Notes under the pieces: model-generated
Told to the model about the DNA's origin: nothing
What the model saw: the letters and a program-made list of their open reading frames with translations, nothing else
Database searches by the model: none
In this document: in pieces, positions 1 to 13,641 of the stretch
How positions within the stretch are numbered: position 1 is the first letter of the stretch
Layout: each line of letters opens with the position of its first letter
Position numbers and translations under genes: made by a program
NCBI GenBank assembly: GCA_026770575.1
Contig: MU657190.1
Location: 67,433-81,328, forward strand
Direction: 5' to 3'
Length of the DNA: 13,896 nt
Source of the DNA: Pelagophyceae sp. CCMP2097
Taxonomy: Eukaryota > Sar > Pelagophyceae

Positions 1-95
1 TAGACCTGCCGCTCTTCCGAGACCGCGCGCAGCTGGCCGCCGCTTTTGACTTTGCGCTGGCAGAGGAGAACTTCGACGTCTTCACCATGGACTAG
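1..95 (+). CDS. HECT E3 ubiquitin ligase, C-terminal end only (first tandem copy)
   Basis: Only the last 30 codons and the TAG stop (93-95) lie in the window; the reading frame starts at base 3. The peptide begins [15 protein letters not shown] and ends in VFTMD. This is the end of a HECT C-lobe, just after the catalytic cysteine, with the conserved phenylalanine four residues from the C-terminus. It aligns without gaps to 4892-4986, the end of the complete copy downstream. There are four base differences before the stop, all synonymous, and the stop is TAG instead of TAA. Similarity ends at the stop codon. The gene is therefore the upstream member of a tandem HECT pair in the same orientation. 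Whether it shares the receptor-like N-terminus of its neighbour cannot be seen. The bases after the stop include a TGTAA at 136-140, of unknown significance. Confidence 0.85.
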   Translation, partial: DLPLFRDRAQLAAAFDFALAEENFDVFTMD

Positions 96-666
96 CTAGC
101 CTCGACGGTGGACCGACGCAAGGGTCTTTTTGTGCTTGTAAACTGTTTAATGTGACCACCGCGCGGGCAGCGTGTAATGCAGGACGACTGGAGAAAGTGC
201 CGAGGATGGGCAGACCCAGATCATCGTATTGCAAGGACGCCTGCATAAAGCCACCCCTCTGAGGCCTGTCATGCGTGACAACCTGAGGGTGTGATCAAGA
301 TGGGTCTCCCCGGATCATCGTATTGCGAGGGCGCTTGCAAAGAGAACCCCGTCTGGGGCTCGCCGGGGCGGTCGTAGCACGACGGCACACCGAGGCATAT
401 GGACCATGTTCAAGGAGTTATACTCTTGCAGTTCAAGTTGCCTCGCTGCGGCGCACGCAACTCTCTCAAATTTCGGATCTTTCTGAAACATTTAATCGCC
501 TGCAGGGGTTTCAAATTTGAAGAGCCAAGTTTCATTTCCGAGAAATGGCTACTTCAAAGCAGTTTCGGGTTTGCTTCCAGCGGAACCCAGAGAAGGGACT
601 CGACGCGTCGGCTGTATCCCGAGCGGCCTTCGGGGCGCCGGCCGCCTCCTCCGCGGCGGGGCGGCC
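96..666. other. Intergenic region between the two HECT copies
   Basis: These 571 bases hold no convincing gene. Reading frames here are short and lack family signatures. The stretch contains a 94-bp-spaced imperfect direct repeat (203-358) and a more AT-rich patch at about 485-560. It presumably carries the 3' end of the first HECT transcript and the promoter and 5' leader of the second. An ATG at 545 in good context (G at -3 and +4) opens a 73-codon frame that ends at 766, overlapping the HECT start at 667 in another frame. I see no TATA box. Confidence 0.6.
203..358. repeat. Imperfect direct repeat, two copies offset by 94 bp
   Basis: Bases 203-264 match 297-358 at 46 of 62 positions without gaps. 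The core GATCATCGTATTGC is identical at 219-232 and 313-326, and GATGGG is identical at 205-210 and 299-304. Similarity fades on both sides. The copies could be an eroded tandem duplication or paired regulatory elements upstream of the second HECT gene. No other copy was noticed in the window. Confidence 0.7.
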
Positions 667-3600
667 ATGGCGCTTCGGAAGAGCCGTAAGTGGCTCAGCA
701 TGGTCGCCGCCGCCGCCGCCGTGGCGTTTACCTCTGGCGACGCAGCGACGGCAGCGTTCGACGTAATACGACCCGCGACGCAGCGTCCCGTGGCGCGGCC
801 GCGAGCGACACGGCGCCGGGGCCGGCGCGAGAGCGAAGCCGGGCGCGCGCGCGAAAAAAGTCCGCGCGACGGCTCCGCGCCTCGCCTCATGGAAGCGACG
901 TAGGCCTCGCCTTGCGCCTCTGCGCCGCGCCCTGACCTCGCCGGAAACGGCATCTGCAACGTTGAAAACGACGTCGACCCGTGCTGGGACGGCGGCGATT
1001 GCGCTCGAAGGCTGCAGTGGAAGGATTCATCGCGGCGCCTGCAGAAGGATGCCGTTTGCGACGATAGTTGCCAATACGCCCACGACGGCGTCTGCGACGA
1101 CGGCGAGGCCAAATCGGCCTTTGACGTCTGCGCCTGCGGGTCCGATTGCGCCGATTGCGGCGACCGGGCCAAGGCACGGTGCGACGGTGAAGAAAGCGTG
1201 TGCGAGAACAGCTGCGCGTTTGCAAACGACGGCGAGTGCGACGACGGCGAGCCGGGCTCCGCGTTTTCGGACTGCGCCTGCGGGACTGACTGCGACGACT
1301 GCGGGGCCCGGTCGTCTTGCGCAGGCGACGACGTTCAAGTCGAGAGCGGCATTTGCGACAACAGCTGTGCGTTTGCAAACGACGGCGAGTGCGACGACGG
1401 CCAGGCCGGTGCGCTCTTCATCGATTGCGCCTGCGGCACCGACTGCGCCGACTGCGGGGTCCGGGAAACATGCGACGGCGACGATGACGGCCCGACGCAG
1501 AGGCCATCTCTCGAACCAATCGGCCAACCCAATCGGCAACCTACTCGCAGCAAACAGCCTACGGGCAAACCCGCGCCCAAGCCGACGCCGCAGCCGACGC
1601 CGCAGCCGACGCCGCCTCCGACGCTGTCGCCGACGCGTAAGCCCACCGACGCGCCGACGCCGCAATCCACGTTGGCGCCGACGCCGCAGCCGACGCTGCA
1701 GCCGACGCCCAAGCCGAGTCCCAAGCCGACACCGCCTCCGACGCTGCCGCTGACGCTGCCGCCGCTGCCGCTGTCGCTCCCGCCGACGCCGCAGCCGACG
1801 CCAAGGCCCACCGACGCACCGACGCCGCGACCGACGCCGCAGCCGACGCCGCAGCCGACGCCGCAGCCGACGCCAAACCCGACGCCGACGCCGACGCCGC
1901 AGCCGACGCGCCGGCCCACCATAGCTCCGACGCAGCGGCCGACGGCATCTCCGACCCCCAAGCCTGGCGACCCGAGTCGACAGCCGACGACCCCACAGCC
2001 GACGACCCGAGAGCCGACGCCGGCGCCGACGCCGCGACCCACTTCGGCTCCTTCGCAGGAGCCGACGCCCACGCCGACGTCCAAGCCGACGCCGCAGCCG
2101 ACGCCGCAGCCGACGCCAAATCCGACGCCAAATCCGACGCGGCAGCCGACGCCGCAGCCGACGTTCCGGCCCACCGTAGCTCCGACCGCACGGCCGACGC
2201 AGCGGCCGACGCCGTCTCCGACTCCCGAGCCAGGAAACCCGACTCGAGTGCCGACGACCCGAGAGCCGACGACTCGACCTACGCCGGCTCCGACGCAGCG
2301 GCCGACGCCCAAACCCACCGCCGCGCCGACGCGTAAGCCCACGTCAGCTCCGACGCCGCAGCCGACACTGCAGCCGACGCTGCAGCCGACGCCAAACCCG
2401 ACGCCAAACCCGACGCCGACCCCAACGCGCCGGCCACAGCCGACGCCGCAGCCGACGCCGCAGCCGACACCGGCGCCGACGCAACGGCCCACCGACTCGC
2501 CGACGACCAAACCGACCAGAGCTCCAACTGCACAGCCGACGCAGCGGCCGACGTCGTCTCCGACCCCAAAGCCAGGCAGCACGACACAAGAGCCGACGAC
2601 TCGACGGCCGACGCCGGCGCCGACGCCGCGACCCACGTCGGCTCCGACGCAGCGGCCGACGCCCACGCCGACGGGCCTGCCGGTGCCTGCGCCGACGGGG
2701 ACGCCCGGCAAGCCGACTGTGACGCCGAAGCCGCAGCCCACGCCGCCTCCGACGTGGAGCCCGACGCCGCAGCCCACGCCCACGCCGACGTCGCGGCCAA
2801 CGGCAACGCCCGGCAGTCCGACCGACGCCCCGACGCCGCGGCCGTCACCGTCGCCGACTCTATCGGCGCCGCCCCTGACCGTGGTCTCAAAAGCCTCTGT
2901 GGTGATCCAGGGCGTCTCCGCGGCAGCGTTTGCGGTTCCGGCGTCCGTGTCGACGTTTAAGATCGCGGTCGTCGAGAGCTCGGACCTCGTGGACGACGCC
3001 AGTAACGTCGTCATCGTGTCGGCGACGGCGGCGTTTACGCGGCGGCGCGGGCGGCGGCTTGACGACGGCGGTGCCGTCGTCGTCGTATTCAGCGTCGTGC
3101 TGATCGACGGCGGTGGCGCCGTCGCGGACGCGGCGTTCTTATTCGACGTTGCCGCCTCCATCGGCGCCGGCACATTCGTGCAGCGCCTGCGGCAGGATGC
3201 TGAGTTTGTGGCGGCGACGGTGAACAGAGCGTCGCTCACGAGCCTCGGCTTTTTGGAGCGATCACTCTTGCCGATGGTGTCCGCGAGATCGAGCGGCGTG
3301 AGCGGCGCCTCAAAGTCAGACGCAACGGCATTTATGGCCATCGTCTTGGGCGTCGTCGGCGGGGCATTGCTCCTGTTCACCGCCGTCGCCTGCTGCGCGT
3401 GCTCCCGGAGGGGCCGTCTGCAGCGCGTGACCACGAAAAAAGCGGCCGCCGCGACCGACGACGCCGCGGAGCGACAGGACTGGCTAGTGGAAGACGAGCC
3501 CGACGATATCGACAACGTCCGCATTACGTTCGGGGCTCGGCCGTCGCTCGTGCAGCGACGGCGATCCATCGACTGGGAGGACACGGACGGGATCCGCGTA

Positions 3601-4986
3601 AGGTGGCACCTCGACGAGGAGGACGAGGAGAAGTTCGTCCGCATCTTCGGGGACGATTCGGACCTCGTCGACTTTGTCAGCGCTTCTCAAGGCCTGCGGC
3701 TCTTCCGAAATGCCCGTGGCGCGCAAACGGCAAGCGTGATGGCCGCGCTCCGCGAAACGCCGTGCGCGCGAGAGTCGTTCAATACGTCGGCTGGCGGTGC
3801 GGCGGCCAAGGCGGCGGCCGACGTCGGGTTCGGGGAGCGCGTCGCCGCCTTCCGCAAGTGCGCCGACGGCCTGCGCGTGCCCTGGCAGCAGGGGCGGGTG
3901 GAGTTCACCGTCGAGCGGCGCGAATGTTTGCAGCAGGGCTTTGACGCTTTGGCGCGGCTATCGGTGGCGCAGTGGCGGCAGCCGTTCTTCGTCACGTTCA
4001 AGGGCGAGGCGGGCCTCGACGCGGGCGGCCTCTCGCGCGAGTTCTTCCGGCTTGCGTCCAAGACGCTGTTCGACACGAACAACGGGCTGTTCAAGTTTGT
4101 CGACTCGACGTACCTCATCAGCGACGATGCGGCGTCGAGTTTGGTCGAGGGCGCCGTCGATTGGTACGTCTTCGCGGGCAAACTCGTGGGCAAGGCGCTG
4201 CTCGAAGGCCACCTCCTCGACGCGCCGCTGAACCGCGTCCTGCTGAAGCACATCGTCGCCGAGCCCGTGGGTATCGACGACCTACGCCTCGTCGACTACG
4301 ACCTCTGGAGGCATCTCCGGCAGCTGCGCGATATTGACGACTTGGACGCGCTGGCGCTGACGTTTTCCATCGACCAAGTGTCGTTTGGCGCCGTCTCGCA
4401 GCGCGAGCTCGTGGTGGGCGGCGATGACGTGGCAGTGACCGCCAGCAACCTTGAGGATTATCTTGGGCTGCGCATGCGCGAGCGTCTGCTGGAAGTGTGC
4501 CGCCGCGGCCTCTCGGCGTTCCTGAAAGGCGTCTACGCGGTCGTTCCTCCAGAGGCACTCATGCTTCTGTCGGCGCGCGAGCTCGAGCTGGCCATCTCGG
4601 GCCTGCCCGACATCGACGTCGACGAGTGGATGCAGCACACGAAATACAAGGGCGAGTTTGCAGGCGATGCGACAGCGCACGCCGTGATCGCAATGTTCTG
4701 GGACGAGGTCCGGAGCTGGGACTCGGCGCGGCGCGCGACGCTGCTGCAGTGGTGCACGGGTGCGTCGCGGCCGCCGATCCAGGGCTTTGAGTTTCTGCAA
4801 GGGCGGGACGGCGTGGCTCGCAAGTTCACGCTCCTCGCCGTGCCGCTCGCGTCGGCGGTCTACCCGCGCGCGCACACGTGCTTCAACCGTATAGACCTGC
4901 CGCTCTTCCGAGATCGAGCGCAGCTGGCCGCCGCTTTTGACTTTGCGCTGGCAGAGGAAAACTTCGACGTCTTCACAATGGACTAA
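667..4986 (+). CDS. Receptor-like transmembrane HECT E3 ubiquitin ligase
   Basis: Predicted type I membrane protein of about 1392 residues, joining exon 667-762 to exon 904-4986; one TAG (901-903) otherwise separates the two in the same frame. The ATG at 667 has strong context (GCGGCCATGG). Residues 1-29 form a signal peptide (basic start, [13 protein letters not shown] core, ATA end). Then come an LNR-like module (NGICN...CWDGGDC), three 8-cysteine modules, a Pro-Thr stalk (about 229-690), a juxtamembrane domain (about 691-838) with a furin-like RGRR at 747-750, and a membrane span (about 842-865) followed by CSRRGR. The HECT domain (about 1033-1392) is complete: [23 protein letters not shown], catalytic Cys1358 in PRAHTCFNR, and Phe at -4. 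HECT domains accept ubiquitin from E2 on this cysteine and pass it to substrate. Extracellular sensing is inferred. The two-exon model is unverified; the long exon itself is secure. Confidence 0.85.
763..903 (+). other. Predicted intron of the HECT gene
   Basis: The donor GAC|GTAATA at 763 and the acceptor ACGTAG|GCC at 903 give a 141-nt phase-0 intron. It joins the signal peptide to the cysteine-rich ectodomain, and its last three bases are the in-frame TAG. The retained sequence would encode Arg-rich low-complexity residues unlike either flank. Other GT donors are possible, so the 5' boundary is less certain than the 3' one. Confidence 0.55.
1492..2880 (+). repeat. Pro-Thr stalk-coding microsatellite-like repeat
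   Basis: About 1.4 kb built on degenerate CCGACGCCGCAG-like 12-mers, encoding [10 protein letters not shown] and variants (RPT, KPT, NPT, APT). It forms the extended stalk between the cysteine modules and the membrane-proximal domain. Blocks such as PTPxPTxAPTxRPT and PTPxPGxPT recur, suggesting longer units duplicated inside the tract. The length is likely to vary between strains or alleles. The opposite strand stays open through the tract only because the repeat lacks stop-generating triplets. Confidence 0.9.
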
Positions 4987-5224
4987 CTTAGGAATCATTT
5001 TACAATGGACCCTGTCTCCGTCCAAAGAGCCCTCGGCGGGCCCGGCCCGTCCCGGTCACCGCTCCGTCGCGAGACCCGAAGCCTTTGAAAGACGAGACCC
5101 ACCGCGCTAATTCGGTACCACGGCCCGGAGGACTCGTCACCACGGCCCGAGGCCCCCACCCTATCCCACCTCTCGCCTATTTTGGCGATCCGCACATTTT
5201 GGCGCCGGGCTGCCTCTTGGGCGC
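4987..5224. promoter_or_regulatory. Intergenic region with two E2F-like sites upstream of the NEPRO-like gene
   Basis: This is the 238-bp gap between the HECT stop and the next predicted start. ATTTTGGCG occurs twice, at 5179-5187 and 5196-5204, 17 bp apart. The second copy continues as TTTTGGCGCC, matching the E2F/DP consensus TTTSGCGC. Both lie within 50 bp of the ATG at 5225. Near the HECT stop, TTYACAATGGAC occurs at 4972-4983 and 4999-5010, a small duplication. E2F control is an inference from motif match only. Confidence 0.35.
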
Positions 5225-6834: not shown

Positions 6835-8292
6835 TCAGGGTCGTTCCAGGCGTCCGCCCCGCCTCCGATGCTTCTCTCGAGTGATCGCCTCGAACAGTGC
6901 CGACGCCTCGACTCTAGCCGTCGCATAAGCCCACACGGTGTTCGCGAGCTCTTGCGGGGTGAACGTCGCGATCTTCTTCGATGCTTCCGCAGCGACCGCC
7001 TCGAACAGTGCCGGCGCCGCGACCTCCGCCTTCGCATAGGCCCACACGGTGTTCGCGAGGTTTTGCGGGTTGAACATCGCGATCTTCTTCGGTGCCTCTG
7101 CGGCGACCGCCTCGAACAGCGCCGGCGTCTCGACGCCCGCCGTCGCAAAAGCCCAGACAGTGTTCGCGAGGTCTTGGGGGTTAAACGTCGCGATCTTCTT
7201 TGATTCTACAGCGACCGCCTCGAACAGCGCCGGTGCCTCGACTCCTGCCGTCGCATAAGCCCAGACGGTGTTCGCGAGCTCTTGTGGGTTGAACGTCACG
7301 ATCTTTTTTGGTGCTTCTGCAGCCACCGCCTCGAACAGCGCCGGTGCCTCGACGCCCGCCGCCGCATAAGCCCACACCGTGTTCGCGAGGTTTTGGGAGT
7401 TGAACGTCGCAATCTTCTTCGATGATTCTGCAGCGACCGCCTCGAACAGCGCCGGCGCCTCGACTCCCGCTGTCGCATAAGCCCAGACGGTGTTCGAGAG
7501 GTTTTGCGGGTTGAACATCGCGATCTTCTTTGATGCTTCTGCAGCGGCCGCCTCGAACAGCGCCGGTGCCTCGACGCCCGCCGTCGCATAGGCCCACACA
7601 TTGTTCGCGAGGTCTTGCGGGTTGAGCGTCGCGATCTTCTTTGATGCCTCTGCAGTGACCGCCTCGAACAGCGCCGGCGCCTCAACTCCCATTGTCGCAT
7701 AAGCCCAGACGACGTTCGAGAGCGCTTGCGGTATAAACGTCGCGATCTTCTTTGATGATTCTGCAGCGACCGCCTCGAACAGCGCCGGCGCCTCGACGCC
7801 CGCCGTCGCAAAAGCCCACACAGTGTTCGCGAGGTTTTGCGGTTCGAACATCGCGATCTTCTTCGGTGCCTGTGGGGCGACCGCCTCGAACAGCGCCGGC
7901 GCCTCGACTCCCGCTGTCGCATAAGCCCAGACGGTGTTCGCGAGCGCTTGCGGGTTGAACGTCGCGATCTTCTTTGGTGCTTCTGCAGTGACCGCCTCGA
8001 ACAGCGCCGGTGCCTCAATTCCCATTGTCGCGTAGGCCCACACGGTGTTCGAGAGCGCTTGCGGTTCGAACGTCGCGATCTTCTTCGGCGCTTCAGCAGC
8101 GACTGCTTCGAACAGCGCCGGCGCCTCGACGCCCGCCGTCGCAAAAGCCCAGACAGTGTTTGCGAGCTCTTGCGGCTTGAACGTCGCGATCTTCTTCGGT
8201 GCCACGGCAGCGACCGCCGCGAACAGCGCCGGCGCCTCGATGTTGCCAATCGTGGCGATGCCCCAGCACGCATTTGCGAGTTCCTGTGGTTT
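6835..8292 (-). repeat. 111-bp tandem coding repeat, 13 units
   Basis: The period is 111 bp (37 codons). Unit 1 (from 8292) is diverged and 38 codons long; unit 10 (7290-7183) has lost one codon near 7205; unit 13 (from 6960) departs from the consensus after EAITRE. Units 2-4 (8178-7846) and 5-7 (7845-7513) share an ordered FATAG / YATMG...VTAEA / YATAG pattern, indicating a 333-bp higher-order duplication. Units are very similar to each other, as expected from recent expansion or gene conversion. Confidence 0.9.
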
Positions 8293-8859
8293 CCACTGGT
8301 TCGCCTCGTTGACGATGGTCAAAGTAGCGCGGTCCACCAACTTGTGCAGGAGCGGTGCAGACGACTTTTCGAGCGAATGCCTGCGGACTCCGAGGAGATG
8401 CAGCGACGTCGCGATGTTTATAGAGTCGTAATGAGCGCCGTTTTCCTCGAAGAGCGAAAGCACTTCGTCAGCGGTCTTGCCCGCAATGAGCAGCTTGTTG
8501 AGGAAGATCGCCACTTTTGTATCACGGGAGAGTCCCGGCCGATTCGCGGACATCTTTCGAGGTGGTGCCGTGCTGGAAGCGAGCTTCACAGCGATCTTGC
8601 AGCCGCACATGATCGTGCCGTCCATGTCGTCGCGCACGACATCTGGATCTGCCGTCAAGATGGTCACGACACCTCGGCCCGTCGAGCCGGTGACTTTGAC
8701 GCTGATCACCTCGCAGTACGGCTCAAACGCCCGCAGCACGTCGCCCTCCGTGGCGTCCTTGGGCAGGTTGCGCACGACGAGCGCCGCCTCGGCACGGGCG
8801 GCGAACCGGCGGACCGGGAGGCGGCGCGCCAGCGACGCGAGGGGGGCGAGCTTGCGCAT
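6835..8859 (-). CDS. Organelle-targeted RRM protein with 13 helical 37-residue repeats
   Basis: A single 674-codon frame from ATG at 8859 to TGA at 6837-6835. I chose this start because the next 22 residues (MRKLAPLASLARRLPVRRF...) are rich in Arg, Leu and Ala with no acidic residue, as in a mitochondrial targeting peptide. The frame is open upstream to an ATG at 9066, but that extension crosses the divergent promoter. Residues 26-94 form an RRM (RNP2-like LVVRNL, RNP1-like GRGVVTIL) lacking the usual RNP1 aromatics. Residues 115-189 are a helical lead-in seen before such repeats. Residues 190-674 are 13 units of consensus F-NPQxLANTVWAYATAG-VEAPALFEAVAAEA-KKIAT, a helical-pair repeat of the FASTK/RAP or OPR type common in algal organellar RNA-binding proteins. 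No RAP domain follows. A role in organellar RNA processing or translation is inferred. Confidence 0.8.
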   Translation of the reverse strand: MRKLAPLASLARRLPVRRFAARAEAALVVRNLPKDATEGDVLRAFEPYCEVISVKVTGSTGRGVVTILTADPDVVRDDMDGTIMCGCKIAVKLASSTAPPRKMSANRPGLSRDTKVAIFLNKLLIAGKTADEVLSLFEENGAHYDSINIATSLHLLGVRRHSLEKSSAPLLHKLVDRATLTIVNEANQWKPQELANACWGIATIGNIEAPALFAAVAAVAPKKIATFKPQELANTVWAFATAGVEAPALFEAVAAEAPKKIATFEPQALSNTVWAYATMGIEAPALFEAVTAEAPKKIATFNPQALANTVWAYATAGVEAPALFEAVAPQAPKKIAMFEPQNLANTVWAFATAGVEAPALFEAVAAESSKKIATFIPQALSNVVWAYATMGVEAPALFEAVTAEASKKIATLNPQDLANNVWAYATAGVEAPALFEAAAAEASKKIAMFNPQNLSNTVWAYATAGVEAPALFEAVAAESSKKIATFNSQNLANTVWAYAAAGVEAPALFEAVAAEAPKKIVTFNPQELANTVWAYATAGVEAPALFEAVAVESKKIATFNPQDLANTVWAFATAGVETPALFEAVAAEAPKKIAMFNPQNLANTVWAYAKAEVAAPALFEAVAAEASKKIATFTPQELANTVWAYATARVEASALFEAITREKHRRRGGRLERP

Positions 8860-9050
8860 GTTGACCGAGTGGAAACTTCCGGGGACCGGACGTCCGAGGC
8901 TGTTGGTCCGACGTCCACGTGACTCCCCTTGGGCCCACAGAACCGTGAGTCGATCGCGGACTTCTCTTTTTCGTCGAAAATTCAGCGATACGTCAAATTT
9001 ACCACGCCGCGCGCCGCAGCGCGGGTGGGCAGCGCCGAGGAGCGGCCGCG
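8860..9050. promoter_or_regulatory. Divergent intergenic region, likely bidirectional promoter
   Basis: 191 bp separate the start codons of the RRM/repeat gene (-) and the SAAL1-like gene (+). There is an AT-richer centre at about 8965-9005 in otherwise GC-rich surroundings. TTTTTCGTCGA at 8967-8977 recurs at 12430-12440, upstream of the nucleoplasmin-like gene. No TATA box was seen. Both 5' leaders must lie inside this interval. Confidence 0.5.
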
Positions 9051-11058
9051 ATGTCCGCGCCGCCACACGACGGTGGCGACGCGGCCATGTCGTCGCCGTC
9101 GCACGACGGCGGCGACGACGACGGCGACGACGGCGCTAGTGCGTCGCTGCTGGAGCCGGGTTCGGTGATCAAGCTCCTCATTTCGTTCCTCGGCGCCGCC
9201 GGCGCCGGCGCGGCTCAAGACGAGGCGCGCTCGAACGACGAGGCGCGGTCGCGCGCGGGCGAGTTCCTCTGGGACCTCAGCGCAGAGACGGCGCCCGCGA
9301 TGCGAAACCCGGACGACGAGAGTCGGCCAGAGCCGCGAGCGGCAGAGGAGGCAGACGGGAGTCTTCGAGGCACACCGTGTGATGCCACAAACCGTCACCA
9401 ACGCTAGGCGCCGACGTCTCTCACGCCGAAACGCTCTTCTCCAACAAGGCCCTCGGCGTCCTCGCCTCCGTCGTCACAGAGGCGCCGCCGGACTTCGCCG
9501 CGCAAGCGCCGACCGCCGACGACGGCGCGTTCGACGCCTTTGACTGCGGCGAAGACGACGACGACGGTCCTCTGCGGTGGCGCTCATCGCTGGCGCGGCG
9601 CACGGAGTTGGCTCTGGGCATCGCGGCCAACTTGGCCTCGCACGCCTCGCTGCGCCGGGCCGTCATTGCAGACGACGGTCTTTTACACATGGCGCAGTTT
9701 TGCCTCATCTGCGCGGAAGACTCGTCCATTCTCCGCGAGGCTTGCCGCCTCTGGGCCGCCGCCGCCGCCGCGGGCGACGGCGGCGCGTGGGCGGACTTTA
9801 TCGGGACGCAAGTGTTTTCGGCAAAGGTAGGGTTTATAATGCACAATGCCTTGAACATTCACCTCCTCGCCTCCGCGTTCCAGCTCGCGCTCGCAATCGC
9901 AGCCTGGCCATCAGACGGCGGGCCGTCTGCCGTGAGCGGCGGCGCGTTTTCCGCGCTGGTCCGCGACCAAGATCTCTTTGGGGCGTGCATCACCGTTCCG
10001 CGCGGCGTCCGACGCTTCTGTGAAACGCGCCATCTCATGCTGTGCAACCGTCCACTGAAACGTGCCACCTCAAAAGGCCCCATGTCAAAAGACGCAGTCG
10101 GCGGAGACGCTCGTTAGGCGCTTTCAGAGGCGGAGACTTTGGTACAAGATGGGGTGTCGCCCGACGCGCTCCCGAGGCTCGACGTGGTCCTCCGCGTGGC
10201 CGCGTTGGCCACCGACCGCCACCGGCCAACACGGCCGGTTGAAACGGCCCTGGCCAAGGCACTCTTGGGGACGCTCGCCTCTGAACGTACGTAAGGAGTC
10301 TTTTGTTGTCGGTGGGTTGACCGAGTACGTAGGCTCGCGCTCCGAGCACTCTTGCGTGCGCTCTTCTGGCCCCGCACGTCAAAGGCCTCGCCTTTGAGAG
10401 ATGGTCGCGCTGGCGCGCATCCTCGACTGCGTCCCCCAAAGTGACACTAGGCCGTCGTCGCTTTGTCCAAACTCAACCCGAGCGAGTTCCTGAGCCCCGC
10501 ATACTTCGAAGACGCCTCGAGACGAACTGCCGTCGTCGCAGCGCTCGCCGCCGTGCCGCGCCGCGTCCCTCCGACCGGAACGGCACAAGGATCGCTCTGG
10601 CACAAGGATCGCTCTGGAAGAGCCACGCGGTAGGTCCTCGACGACGCCCTCGACGACGTCCTGGACGACGACGACGTTCTGGACCCCACCGACGAATTTT
10701 CCGCGGCGGCCGCCGCCGTGCGTCGCCCGACGCGGATGCCGTGATGCGCCGTCGATGCGGGCGCACGTAGGGACACGCGTTGAGACTTGCGGCCAACGTC
10801 TTTTCCGCGGCGGAGGCAGCGGCCCGTGCGGCAGCCGACGGCGCGCCCCGCGTGCCGTCCGACCCGGCGCTGCACCTCGCGACGACGCGCCTCCTGGGCA
10901 TAGTGCTCCGCCTCGTCGAAAATGCAACGGAACCAGCCGCGGCCAAAATGCGCCTCGGACATCTTCGCGACCGCTACGCCGACGTCGTCCGGTACGCTGA
11001 AGACGCCACCGCGCCCGCGCCGCTCGCCGGGAGCAAACGGGCCCGCGACGGCGGTTGA
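9051..11058 (+). CDS. SAAL1-like armadillo-type protein, multi-exon
   Basis: Coding blocks: 9051 to about 9360 (or 9321), 9408 to about 9994, 10118-10290, an unresolved block within 10333-10450, 10451 to about 10564, 10634-10717 and 10771-11058 (stop TGA). Total length is about 500 residues, near that of animal SAAL1 (about 470). Matches follow the family's order: GEFLWDLSAE for the ICRVWDMS motif; SNKALGVLASVV; TELALGIAANLASHASLR for the helix around ICVGILGNMAC; ILREACRLWAAA; KVGFIMHNALNIHLLASAFQL; RLDVVLRVAALAT; and a C-terminal LHLATTRLLGIVL segment. SAAL1 is a helical-repeat protein linked to cell proliferation in animals; its molecular action is unclear. The first exon starts with an Asp/Gly-rich low-complexity segment, and the protein ends in GSKRARDGG. 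Junctions at 10718-10770 (53 nt) and the GTAAGG donor at 10291 look strong; the rest need transcripts. Confidence 0.65.
10584..10617. repeat. Exact 17-bp tandem duplication in a predicted intron
   Basis: CACAAGGATCGCTCTGG is repeated head to tail (10584-10600, 10601-10617). It lies between the SAAL1-like coding blocks ending about 10564 and starting at 10634, in what is probably an intron (acceptor GCGGTAG|GTC). The unit length equals that of the duplication at 6771-6804, but the sequences differ. Confidence 0.9.
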
Positions 11059-12440: not shown

Positions 12441-12479
12441 GACCGCTGAGACCGCTGACTCCCGCACCCCCCGCGTAGC

Positions 12480-13641
12480 ATGTCTTCGTTCTGGGGCGGC
12501 TCCGTCTCCGCGGCGGCGCCGCTGGTCTACGAGCCGGACTTTTCCGAGTTGACTCTCGCAAGGGCGGTGGTCGTCTCGGGCAAGGCGGGGGGGCGCTGTA
12601 CTTTGTACATACAAGCCGACGACGGCAAACGGTTCGCCTTGTGCACCTTGAGCACGGACTGCGGGTCCGCCAAGCTGGACATGCAGTGCGGGACTGGAAA
12701 CGAGGAAATCACCTTCTCCGTCGAAGGTGCGTTTTTCCGACGCAGACGTTTGTGCGACGCAGACCCGACGCTCTACGCTTCTAGGCGGCGACGCCACCGT
12801 GCATCTCACGGGTTACGTGAACCCTCCGGCGGAGTACGAGATGGACTCTGATGAAGAGGCGGACGATGAAGAGGAAATCGATGACGATGGCGAGGTCGTG
12901 GACGAAAAGGTCCTCGCCGTCTCCAAATTCGGCATCGCGCGAATGGCCACCGACGAAGATGACGAGGACGACGACGACTTTGAGGAGGGCGACGAGGACG
13001 AGGACGAGTTGGATGGCGCCGAGGAACGGGCCGCTTCCAAGGCGCTTTACGCAAACGACTCGGACGACGAAGACTCCGACGAAGACGAGTTCGGCGTGCA
13101 ATCGCTCATCGAGACGCAGGCCAAGGTGAAGAAGGCGAAGTCGCCGAAGGCCAAGGCCGAGGTGAAGAAGTCTCCCGCGCCCGCCGTGAAGTCGCCGGCC
13201 GTGAAGTCGCCGGCGCCGACGACGCTCAAGCCGCCGGCGGCCAAGTCGCCCGCGGTCAAGTCGCCGGCGCCGACGACGCTCAAGTCGCCGGCGGCTAAGT
13301 CGCCGGTGGTCAAGGGCGAGGCCAAGTCGCCGGCTGTGAAGTCGCCGGCCGCCGCCAAGTCGCCGGCCGCCAAGTCGCCGGCCGCCGACGCTGGGAAGAC
13401 CAAACGGAAGCTGGAGGAGAATTCGCCTGTGGCGGCGAAGAAGGTCAAGACGGAGGAGGGCGACTCTGCTGGGTGGAAGACTTCTATCGTAGACTACCTC
13501 AAAACCAACGGCACCTCTGCCCTCTCCGCGCTGGGCAACCACTGCAAGAAACCGACGGGCGTGCAGACAAAGCTCAAGGCGTTCCTGGCGAGCCATCCTG
13601 ACACGTTCAACTTTGACGGACCCAACGTCGCCTTAAAGTAA
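12480..13641 (+). CDS. Nucleoplasmin-like histone chaperone (HD2/NPL type)
   Basis: Two exons, 12480-12726 and 12785-13641 (TAA stop), encode 367 residues. The protein starts MSSFWGGSV, like the FWG start of plant HD2 and FKBP-NPL proteins. Residues 1 to about 98 fit the nucleoplasmin-like beta domain, including FALCTLSTDCGSAKLDMQC and, across the splice, FSVEGGDATVHLTGYVNPP. Three acidic tracts follow (DEEADDEEEIDDD, DEDDEDDDDFEEGDEDEDE, DSDDEDSDEDE), then a Lys-Ser-Pro repeat region, a basic KTKRK / KKVK segment, and a C-terminal domain of about 55 residues (WKTSIVDYL ... FLASHPDTFNF). There is no FKBP domain and no zinc finger. Such proteins are nuclear or nucleolar histone chaperones; acidic tracts bind histones, and KSP sites suit CDK phosphorylation. 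The family call is strong at the N-terminus; the C-terminal domain is described by pattern only. Confidence 0.8.
12727..12784 (+). other. Predicted 58-nt intron of the nucleoplasmin-like gene
   Basis: Donor GAAG|GTGCGT and acceptor TTCTAG|GCGG give a phase-1 intron. Splicing rebuilds the conserved end of the NPL domain (EGGDATVHLTGY). Without splicing, the frame runs into Arg-rich sequence and loses the acidic and KSP regions. This is the best supported intron in the window. Confidence 0.85.
13201..13308 (+). repeat. 54-bp tandem repeat within the KSP region
   Basis: Two 54-bp units (13201-13254, 13255-13308) encode VKSPAPTTLKPPAAKSPA and VKSPAPTTLKSPAAKSPV. They sit in a longer run of KSPA motifs (about 13170-13390), resembling histone H1 tails. 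The degenerate GTSAAGTCGCCGGC core recurs outside the pair. Confidence 0.85.

What the first reader, a model, noticed from the sequence alone, without database searches (positions are those of the whole stretch)
667..4986. Receptor-shaped HECT ubiquitin ligase: cysteine-rich ectodomain, stalk and membrane span fused to a catalytic HECT domain
One continuous 1360-codon exon joins LNR-like and cysteine-rich modules, a Pro-Thr stalk, a membrane span and a complete HECT domain with its catalytic Cys and Phe at -4. A short upstream exon supplies a signal peptide. Known HECT ligases are almost all soluble or peripheral and reach membranes through C2 domains, adaptors or PY motifs. A single-pass receptor carrying its own E3 would link an outside signal directly to ubiquitination, much as a receptor kinase links to phosphorylation. 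The architecture is read directly; the signalling role is inferred.
Basis: partly seen in the sequence, partly recalled or inferred. Interest (0 to 1): 0.88.

Follow-up and report, generated by a model that had tools for sequence, protein, structure and literature searches.

The report
Receptor-like transmembrane HECT ubiquitin ligase
A marine alga encodes a cell-surface-type protein that joins an outside region, one membrane crossing and a HECT ubiquitin-tagging enzyme inside the cell, and relatives of it in other algae of its group keep this layout.

Summary
Window 904-4986 is one 1360-codon frame; exon 1 (667-762) adds a signal peptide through a phase-0 GT-AG intron (splicing inferred). Order: Cys-rich ectodomain, 457-residue Pro-Thr stalk, membrane-proximal domain, span, linker, complete HECT with catalytic Cys and Phe at -4. 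It is not a chance fusion: all 10 pelagophyte-type relatives retrieved have a span before HECT, one of them an MMETSP transcript ORF marked complete, and a tandem paralogue and a third gene lie in the same genome. Their HECT domains form one clade. New here: the membrane-proximal domain is predicted SEA-like (modest margin), with a basic RRxL-type motif in a loop where SEA domains and Notch are cut (recalled); 11 of 12 sequences have it. The LNR label is motif-level only. Oomycetes have a related anchored zinc-finger HECT family. Closest known: AREL1 (HECT, N-terminal span, no ectodomain) and ZNRF3/RNF43 (same layout, RING). Topology is predicted; ligand, substrate, cleavage and signalling are inferred. 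New variant of a known kind.

The parts
667..762 (+). Exon 1: signal peptide [32 protein letters not shown]
   Evidence: Basic n-region and hydrophobic core (10-mer mean 2.39); joins exon 2 in phase 0. The tandem paralogue has an equivalent signal-like exon. Splicing is inferred.
763..903 (+). Intron, 141 nt, GT...AG, phase 0, with an in-frame stop at 901-903 if unspliced
904..4986 (+). Exon 2, 1360 codons plus stop
913..1002 (+). LNR-like element ([21 protein letters not shown])
   Evidence: Read directly; a similar element (GDGVCDAGNAYAPCFDGGDC) opens exon 2 of the tandem paralogue; no Pfam match
1057..1473 (+). Three 8-Cys modules (about 1057-1182, 1201-1320, 1354-1473)
   Evidence: Direct repeat D5, 3 copies, 72% to the reference; Cys positions; relatives of the module at 3 other loci of the genome
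1489..2859 (+). Pro-Thr stalk, 457 residues, 37% P, 25% T
2878..3258 (+). Membrane-proximal SEA-like domain (strand-helix-strand-strand-helix-strand)
3040..3060 (+). Basic motif RRRGRRL in the loop between strands 2 and 3 (putative processing site)
   Evidence: Pattern present in 11 of 12 family sequences; loop of low confidence in the model
3322..3399 (+). Membrane-spanning helix, followed by CCAC and basic residues
   Evidence: Hydropathy 2.52; helix 165-190 in the model, at low confidence; net charge 0 outside, +6 inside
3559..3702 (+). Small predicted beta module before HECT (W...W...FVR...FV)
   Evidence: Strands within 232-279 of model mbb3d5bc4af63, block pLDDT 57-77; Arg 233 and Trp 247 invariant in the 14 rows of A1, four oomycete rows included
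4051..4965 (+). HECT domain
   Evidence: PF00632 E 1.4e-64; NEDD4 4bbn_A E 5.7e-59
4879..4881 (+). Codon of the catalytic Cys in [10 protein letters not shown]
   Evidence: TCFNR invariant in the 14 rows of A1; aligns with NEDD4
4972..4974 (+). Codon of Phe at -4
   Evidence: 11 of 11 family proteins end F[ST][MI][DE]
3..95 (+). 3' end of the HECT gene of the upstream tandem paralogue; the middle of that gene lies across an assembly gap
   Evidence: 95% identical to 4892-4988; 5 of 5 codon differences synonymous, stop codon included; 9833 N in the 9933 bases of L021 before the window; 5' part at C27:55008-57302

Best explanation
The gene encodes a type I single-pass transmembrane HECT E3 ubiquitin ligase of a family found so far in pelagophytes and unnamed sources. 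The signal peptide sends the Cys-rich ectodomain, stalk and SEA-like domain to the lumen or cell surface; the span and its basic inner flank anchor it; the HECT domain faces the cytosol and passes ubiquitin through its catalytic Cys. Most likely it works as a receptor-type E3: the variable ectodomain binds an outside ligand or partner, and this sets which membrane neighbours (receptors, transporters, itself) are ubiquitinated and sent for endocytosis or turnover, as ZNRF3/RNF43 do with a RING domain. Shown by sequence: architecture, family conservation, catalytic residues. Predicted: topology, SEA-like fold. Inferred: ligand binding, substrates, cleavage at the basic motif, signalling.
For: Open frame, splice and domains. 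All 11 family proteins tabulated (window, P0002-P0010, P0048) have a span, TCFN and Phe at -4, with the catalytic Cys 448-614 residues after the start of the span; the inner flank is more positive than the outer in 10 of 11. P0006 is an MMETSP transcript ORF named complete and carries a hydrophobic N-terminus, Cys modules, PT stalk, span and HECT on one ORF. Tandem paralogue with the same plan but no 8-Cys modules; third gene at C19 with signal-like exon, PT stalk, span and HECT, no Cys module, its exons joined by inference. HECT clade support 100/100 for 10 rows. 5 of 5 synonymous changes at the paralogue's 3' end suggest purifying selection. Ectodomain modules differ between members while span and HECT stay. 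ZNRF3/RNF43 layout.
Against: No activity, localisation, ligand or substrate data. Three of 11 family proteins (P0002, P0005, P0048) start inside the PT stalk and show no signal peptide, and P0009 has a weak one, perhaps from truncated models. In P0006 the outer flank is more positive than the inner (+3 against +1). P0007 has further hydrophobic stretches near its N-terminus, so its topology is less clear, and the window has a second stretch of 2.11. P0008 and P0010 are gene models with damaged HECT parts. The PT stalk and Cys modules could serve adhesion rather than sensing.
Confidence: 0.62

Rival explanations
1. A constitutive membrane-anchored E3 with no outside signal: the ectodomain is structural (adhesion to wall, mucilage or other cells) and HECT ubiquitinates nearby membrane proteins as housekeeping.
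For: Cys content before the span ranges from 0 to 71 in the family; the C19 gene has a PT stalk only; AREL1 is an anchored HECT without ectodomain.
Against: A folded membrane-proximal domain and a basic loop motif are kept in most members, which a plain anchor does not need; the tandem copies differ in ectodomain.
Confidence: 0.27
2. Translation starts at internal Met 791 (nt 3274), giving a signal-anchor HECT with no ectodomain; the upstream frame belongs to another transcript or is not translated.
For: The first Met of exon 2 is residue 791, 22 residues before the best span window; oomycete relatives have short regions before the span; AREL1 has an N-terminal span.
Against: 790 codons stay open upstream, the SEA-like domain is conserved with the paralogue (70 of 145 identical), a signal exon joins in phase 0, and transcript-derived P0006 runs through.
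Confidence: 0.06
3. Assembly or gene-model artefact that joins two genes.
For: An assembly gap and a second copy of the 3' end lie just upstream.
Against: One uninterrupted frame, and the same order of stalk, span and HECT in 10 relatives from other sources.
Confidence: 0.03

Closest known systems
ZNRF3/RNF43 (transmembrane RING E3 ligases of Wnt receptor turnover)
   Same: Signal peptide, extracellular domain, transmembrane domain, intracellular E3 domain (PMC4931619 passage)
   Different: RING instead of HECT, so no Cys-thioester step (recalled); a different ectodomain; animal
AREL1 (human HECT E3)
   Same: HECT ligase with a single span (PMC12864862 passages)
   Different: Span at the very N-terminus, the rest cytosolic, no ectodomain; ER; the window's protein scores lower against AREL1 than against NEDD4 (125 and 203 bits)
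Oomycete HECT proteins with hydrophobic segment and zinc finger (P0019, P0036-P0047; P0030 similar)
   Same: Hydrophobic segment before HECT, invariant pre-HECT Arg and Trp in the four rows aligned, same larger HECT clade for the eight rows used
   Different: Short or no region before the segment, no PT stalk or SEA-like domain seen, a RanBP2-like zinc finger after it (pattern match; name recalled)
NEDD4/RSP5 family
   Same: Best solved-structure match for HECT (4bbn_A, E 5.7e-59)
   Different: C2 and WW domains not found; separated in the HECT tree
Notch / SEA-domain membrane proteins
   Same: LNR-like motif, and a membrane-proximal SEA-like domain with a basic loop motif before the span
   Different: LNR not at Pfam level and far from the SEA-like domain; no EGF or ankyrin found; HECT inside; cleavage untested

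Membership tests
HECT E3 ligases | HECT domain over Pfam cut-off | tested here: met
   219.2 bits against 23.9
HECT E3 ligases | Catalytic Cys in the C-lobe and Phe at -4 | tested here: met
HECT E3 ligases | Ubiquitin thioester and transfer | not testable with these tools
   needs biochemistry
NEDD4 family | C2 and WW domains | tested here: not met
   Only HECT and PT found by Pfam
NEDD4 family | HECT clusters with NEDD4 | tested here: not met
   The six fungal-type NEDD4 rows and the pelagophyte rows fall on opposite sides of a 97/100 branch; the root is arbitrary and no animal NEDD4 was in the tree
Transmembrane RING E3 (ZNRF3/RNF43) | RING domain | tested here: not met
   No RING in the Pfam scan
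SEA domain | Strand-helix-strand-strand-helix-strand fold next to the membrane | tested here: met
SEA domain | Pfam-level sequence match | tested here: not met
   0 families for 2857-3405
SEA domain | G-S-x-x-x self-cleavage motif (recalled) | tested here: not met
   Sequence at the start of strand 3 is GGAVVVVF
Notch-type LNR | Pfam Notch/LNR match | tested here: not met
   No match
Notch | EGF, LNR and ankyrin set (PMC2770060 passages) | tested here: not met
   None in the Pfam scan of exon 2
Type I membrane protein | Cleavable signal peptide and one span, positive inside | tested here: inconclusive
   Hydropathy and charge agree for the window; no dedicated predictor and no experiment

The most novel reading that the evidence does not exclude
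A Notch-like switch with an E3 inside: the receptor is cut at the conserved RRxL-type motif in the SEA-like loop and stays as a non-covalent heterodimer; ligand, force or wall contact separates the halves and changes the position, clustering or activity of the HECT domain, so an outside event is turned directly into ubiquitination, by a class of receptor E3 that arose in stramenopiles separately from the RING type.
Probability: 0.18. Interest if true: 0.87.

Novelty: new variant of a known kind. Interest (0 to 1): 0.67.

Why it matters
Cell-surface ubiquitin ligases with an ectodomain are known with RING domains. A conserved family with the HECT mechanism would mean that receptor-type E3s arose more than once. 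HECT domains are often held in check by neighbouring domains (recalled), so control across a membrane would be a testable new mode. It may also bear on oomycete HECT proteins with signal peptides, which one genome paper discusses in a paragraph that mentions secreted effectors (PMC2926784 passages): 13 of 13 retrieved here carry a hydrophobic segment that could be a span, though in two (P0043, P0047) it is at the very N-terminus, and these may not be the proteins meant there.

Tried and rejected
Foldseek against PDB gave no hit at E <= 0.001; its top rows were amidases and other folds. Only the VIA-align second look ranks SEA domains first; the tool's note gives 7 to 8 as a typical best Z for models without a clear match, and HMG-CoA reductases reach 8.3, so the SEA call rests on fold plus position. 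The larger model has low confidence in the SEA part (blocks 32-68), so I used the smaller one. Alignment A3 placed the query's ends badly and was not used.

Processing partners: presenilin PF01080 gave 0 matches, but no control genome rang, so it says nothing. The proprotein-convertase domain PF01483 gave 0 in G000 and rang in 1 of 14 controls: weakly against a furin/kexin-type cut. The protease of the diatom RXL domain is called unknown (PMC5525289 passage). PMC5647440 (passages) says that RXL sites had so far been found only in biosilica-associated proteins and that their role in precursor processing remains to be proven.

A chassis shared with other catalytic domains: in the own genome only the window and its tandem paralogue match the SEA-like region at E <= 1. 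The 8-Cys module has relatives at C2, C53 and C221; none of these is on the HECT list, and I read them in part only. The last protein search gave 13 proteins: the query, one further family member (P0048) and 11 mammalian HECT proteins (7 named HECW1) matched over 37% of the query.

Shuffle control of the basic motif: 5-36% of residue shuffles of each sequence contain it; shuffles ignore relatedness, and the pattern was chosen after looking. P0010 lacks it. P0008 has it in an Arg-rich stretch that looks frame-shifted, so it counts for little. P0002 has it 141 residues before the span, in a longer loop by alignment. P0048 was judged by eye.

Limits of the searches: each of the three protein searches scored only about 8000 candidates. 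The other HECT genes of G000 were not checked for spans systematically; the output was cut.

Tree: 33 rows. Left out: P0010 (broken model), P0048 (found later), P0035, oomycete P0038, P0040-P0042, P0045, P0046, the other NEDD4-type rows, and the own-genome HECT places at C70, C102, C222 and C336. P0033 is unnamed and was put with the fungi by its domain set. Three rows have very long branches. Grouping of the oomycete rows is weak (76/81), and own-genome HECTs in which I saw no span (C516, C65, C23) fall in the same larger clade, so one origin of the span in stramenopiles is not shown.

Papers: 10 searches. The phrase 'transmembrane HECT' gave no paper in that library. I read find-passages only, in PMC5913265, PMC4327156, PMC12864862, PMC5525289, PMC2837046, PMC2926784, PMC3790786, PMC4931619, PMC2770060 and PMC5647440; in PMC3712016 the terms transmembrane, membrane, stramenopile and heterokont gave no passage. 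The eukaryote-wide HECT survey PMC3673628 is not held, so an earlier mention there cannot be excluded.
Full report
WHAT IS THERE. The window lies in an unnamed 66.2 Mb, 638-contig genome (G000, contig C27:67433-81328). The frame 904-4986 (+) runs 1360 codons. Exon 1 (667-762) encodes a 32-residue signal-peptide-like leader; a 141-nt GT-AG intron in phase 0 joins it to exon 2 (splicing inferred). The first Met within exon 2 is residue 791, so the ectodomain needs an upstream exon. The 1392-residue product has 28 Cys within residues 36-222 (one LNR-like element, three 8-Cys modules), a 457-residue Pro-Thr stalk, a membrane-proximal domain, a span and about 525 cytosolic residues ending in HECT. 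HECT matches Pfam over positions 2-303 of 306 and NEDD4 structures best; the catalytic Cys aligns and Phe stands at -4. A weaker hydrophobic stretch (2.11) lies in the membrane-proximal domain.

IT IS A CONSERVED FAMILY. A search with residues 655-1360 gave 34 proteins, 7989 candidates scored. Nine (P0002-P0010) are of the same kind: two of Aureoumbra lagunensis (Pelagophyceae), two of Aureococcus, one MMETSP transcript ORF named complete (P0006) and four unnamed. One more (P0048) came later. In the table of these 10 with the window, 11 of 11 have a span, TCFN and Phe at -4; 7 of 11 have a hydrophobic core of 2.3 or more at the N-terminus, P0009 a weak one, and P0002, P0005 and P0048 start in the stalk. 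P0008 and P0010 are models with damaged HECT parts. Of the other 25 hits, three have a segment of hydropathy 1.8 or more: P0019 and P0030 (oomycetes) and P0025 (a fungal protein, near its N-terminus); 22 have none. Two more family genes lie in G000. One is a tandem paralogue upstream: its 5' part (C27:55008-57302) has the LNR-like element, stalk, SEA-like domain, span and linker, then runs into an assembly gap; window nt 3-95 hold its last 30 HECT codons and stop. The other, at C19, has a signal-like exon, Pro-Thr stalk, span and HECT but no Cys module; its exons are joined by inference. Between window and paralogue the SEA-like domain is 70 of 145 identical, the linker 89 of 171, and the 3' coding end differs by 5 synonymous changes only. 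The 10 pelagophyte-type HECT rows (P0001-P0009 and C19) form one clade with 100/100 support in a 33-row tree.

OOMYCETES. P0019 and 12 relatives all carry a hydrophobic segment of 2.0 or more that starts at residue 7-87; in P0043 and P0047 it is at the very N-terminus. A RanBP2-like zinc-finger pattern follows in 13 of 13, and in P0030 too (name recalled). 12 of these 13 keep TCFN; P0038 does not and carries PF02204 (VPS9, name recalled) as well. The eight oomycete rows in the tree share the larger clade (97/100) with the pelagophyte rows and with three own-genome HECTs in which I saw no span. The four rows in A1 share the pre-HECT Arg and Trp. A Pythium ultimum genome paper counts 56 HECT ligases, 16 with signal peptides and 10 with signal anchors, in a paragraph that mentions secreted effectors and relates the expanded group to UPL1/UPL2 (PMC2926784 passages); whether these are the same proteins was not tested.

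HOW IT MOST LIKELY WORKS. Shown: architecture, conservation, catalytic residues. Predicted: type I topology, SEA-like fold. Inferred: the ectodomain meets an outside partner, and HECT ubiquitinates membrane neighbours, which directs their endocytosis. The nearest working model is ZNRF3/RNF43 (signal peptide, extracellular domain, span, RING; PMC4931619 passage). The nearest HECT is AREL1, with a span at the very N-terminus and the rest cytosolic (PMC12864862 passages).

VERDICT. I searched 10 times for print and saw no receptor-type HECT in the listings, but the library is partial and the main HECT survey is not held. New variant of a known kind; interest 0.67.

Noticed in passing
window 3-95 and G000 C27:55008-57302 (L039): Tandem paralogue of the gene, interrupted by an assembly gap; its ectodomain lacks the 8-Cys modules.
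   Followed up: yes
window 3559-3702: A small conserved beta module before HECT, with Arg and Trp shared with oomycete HECT proteins; Pfam shows no family there.
   Followed up: partly
P0019, P0036-P0047: Oomycete HECT proteins with a hydrophobic segment (leader plus span in most) and a RanBP2-like zinc-finger pattern.
   Followed up: partly
window 6835-9135 (-): 766-residue frame with 11 repeat copies at 108-111-nt spacing, matching FAST_1 and DUF1601; an RRM match lies below its cut-off.
   Followed up: no
window 12459-13641 (+): Nucleoplasmin-like domain (NPL, E 1.4e-7) followed in another frame by an acidic stretch and KSPA-type repeats; probably one spliced gene.
   Followed up: partly
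G000 C2:346742, C53:26685, C221:12163: Relatives of the 8-Cys module occur at other loci of this genome; the module matched no Pfam family here.
   Followed up: partly
window 219-326: A short stretch (GATCATCGTATTGC) occurs twice upstream of the gene, about 94 nt apart (by eye).
   Followed up: no
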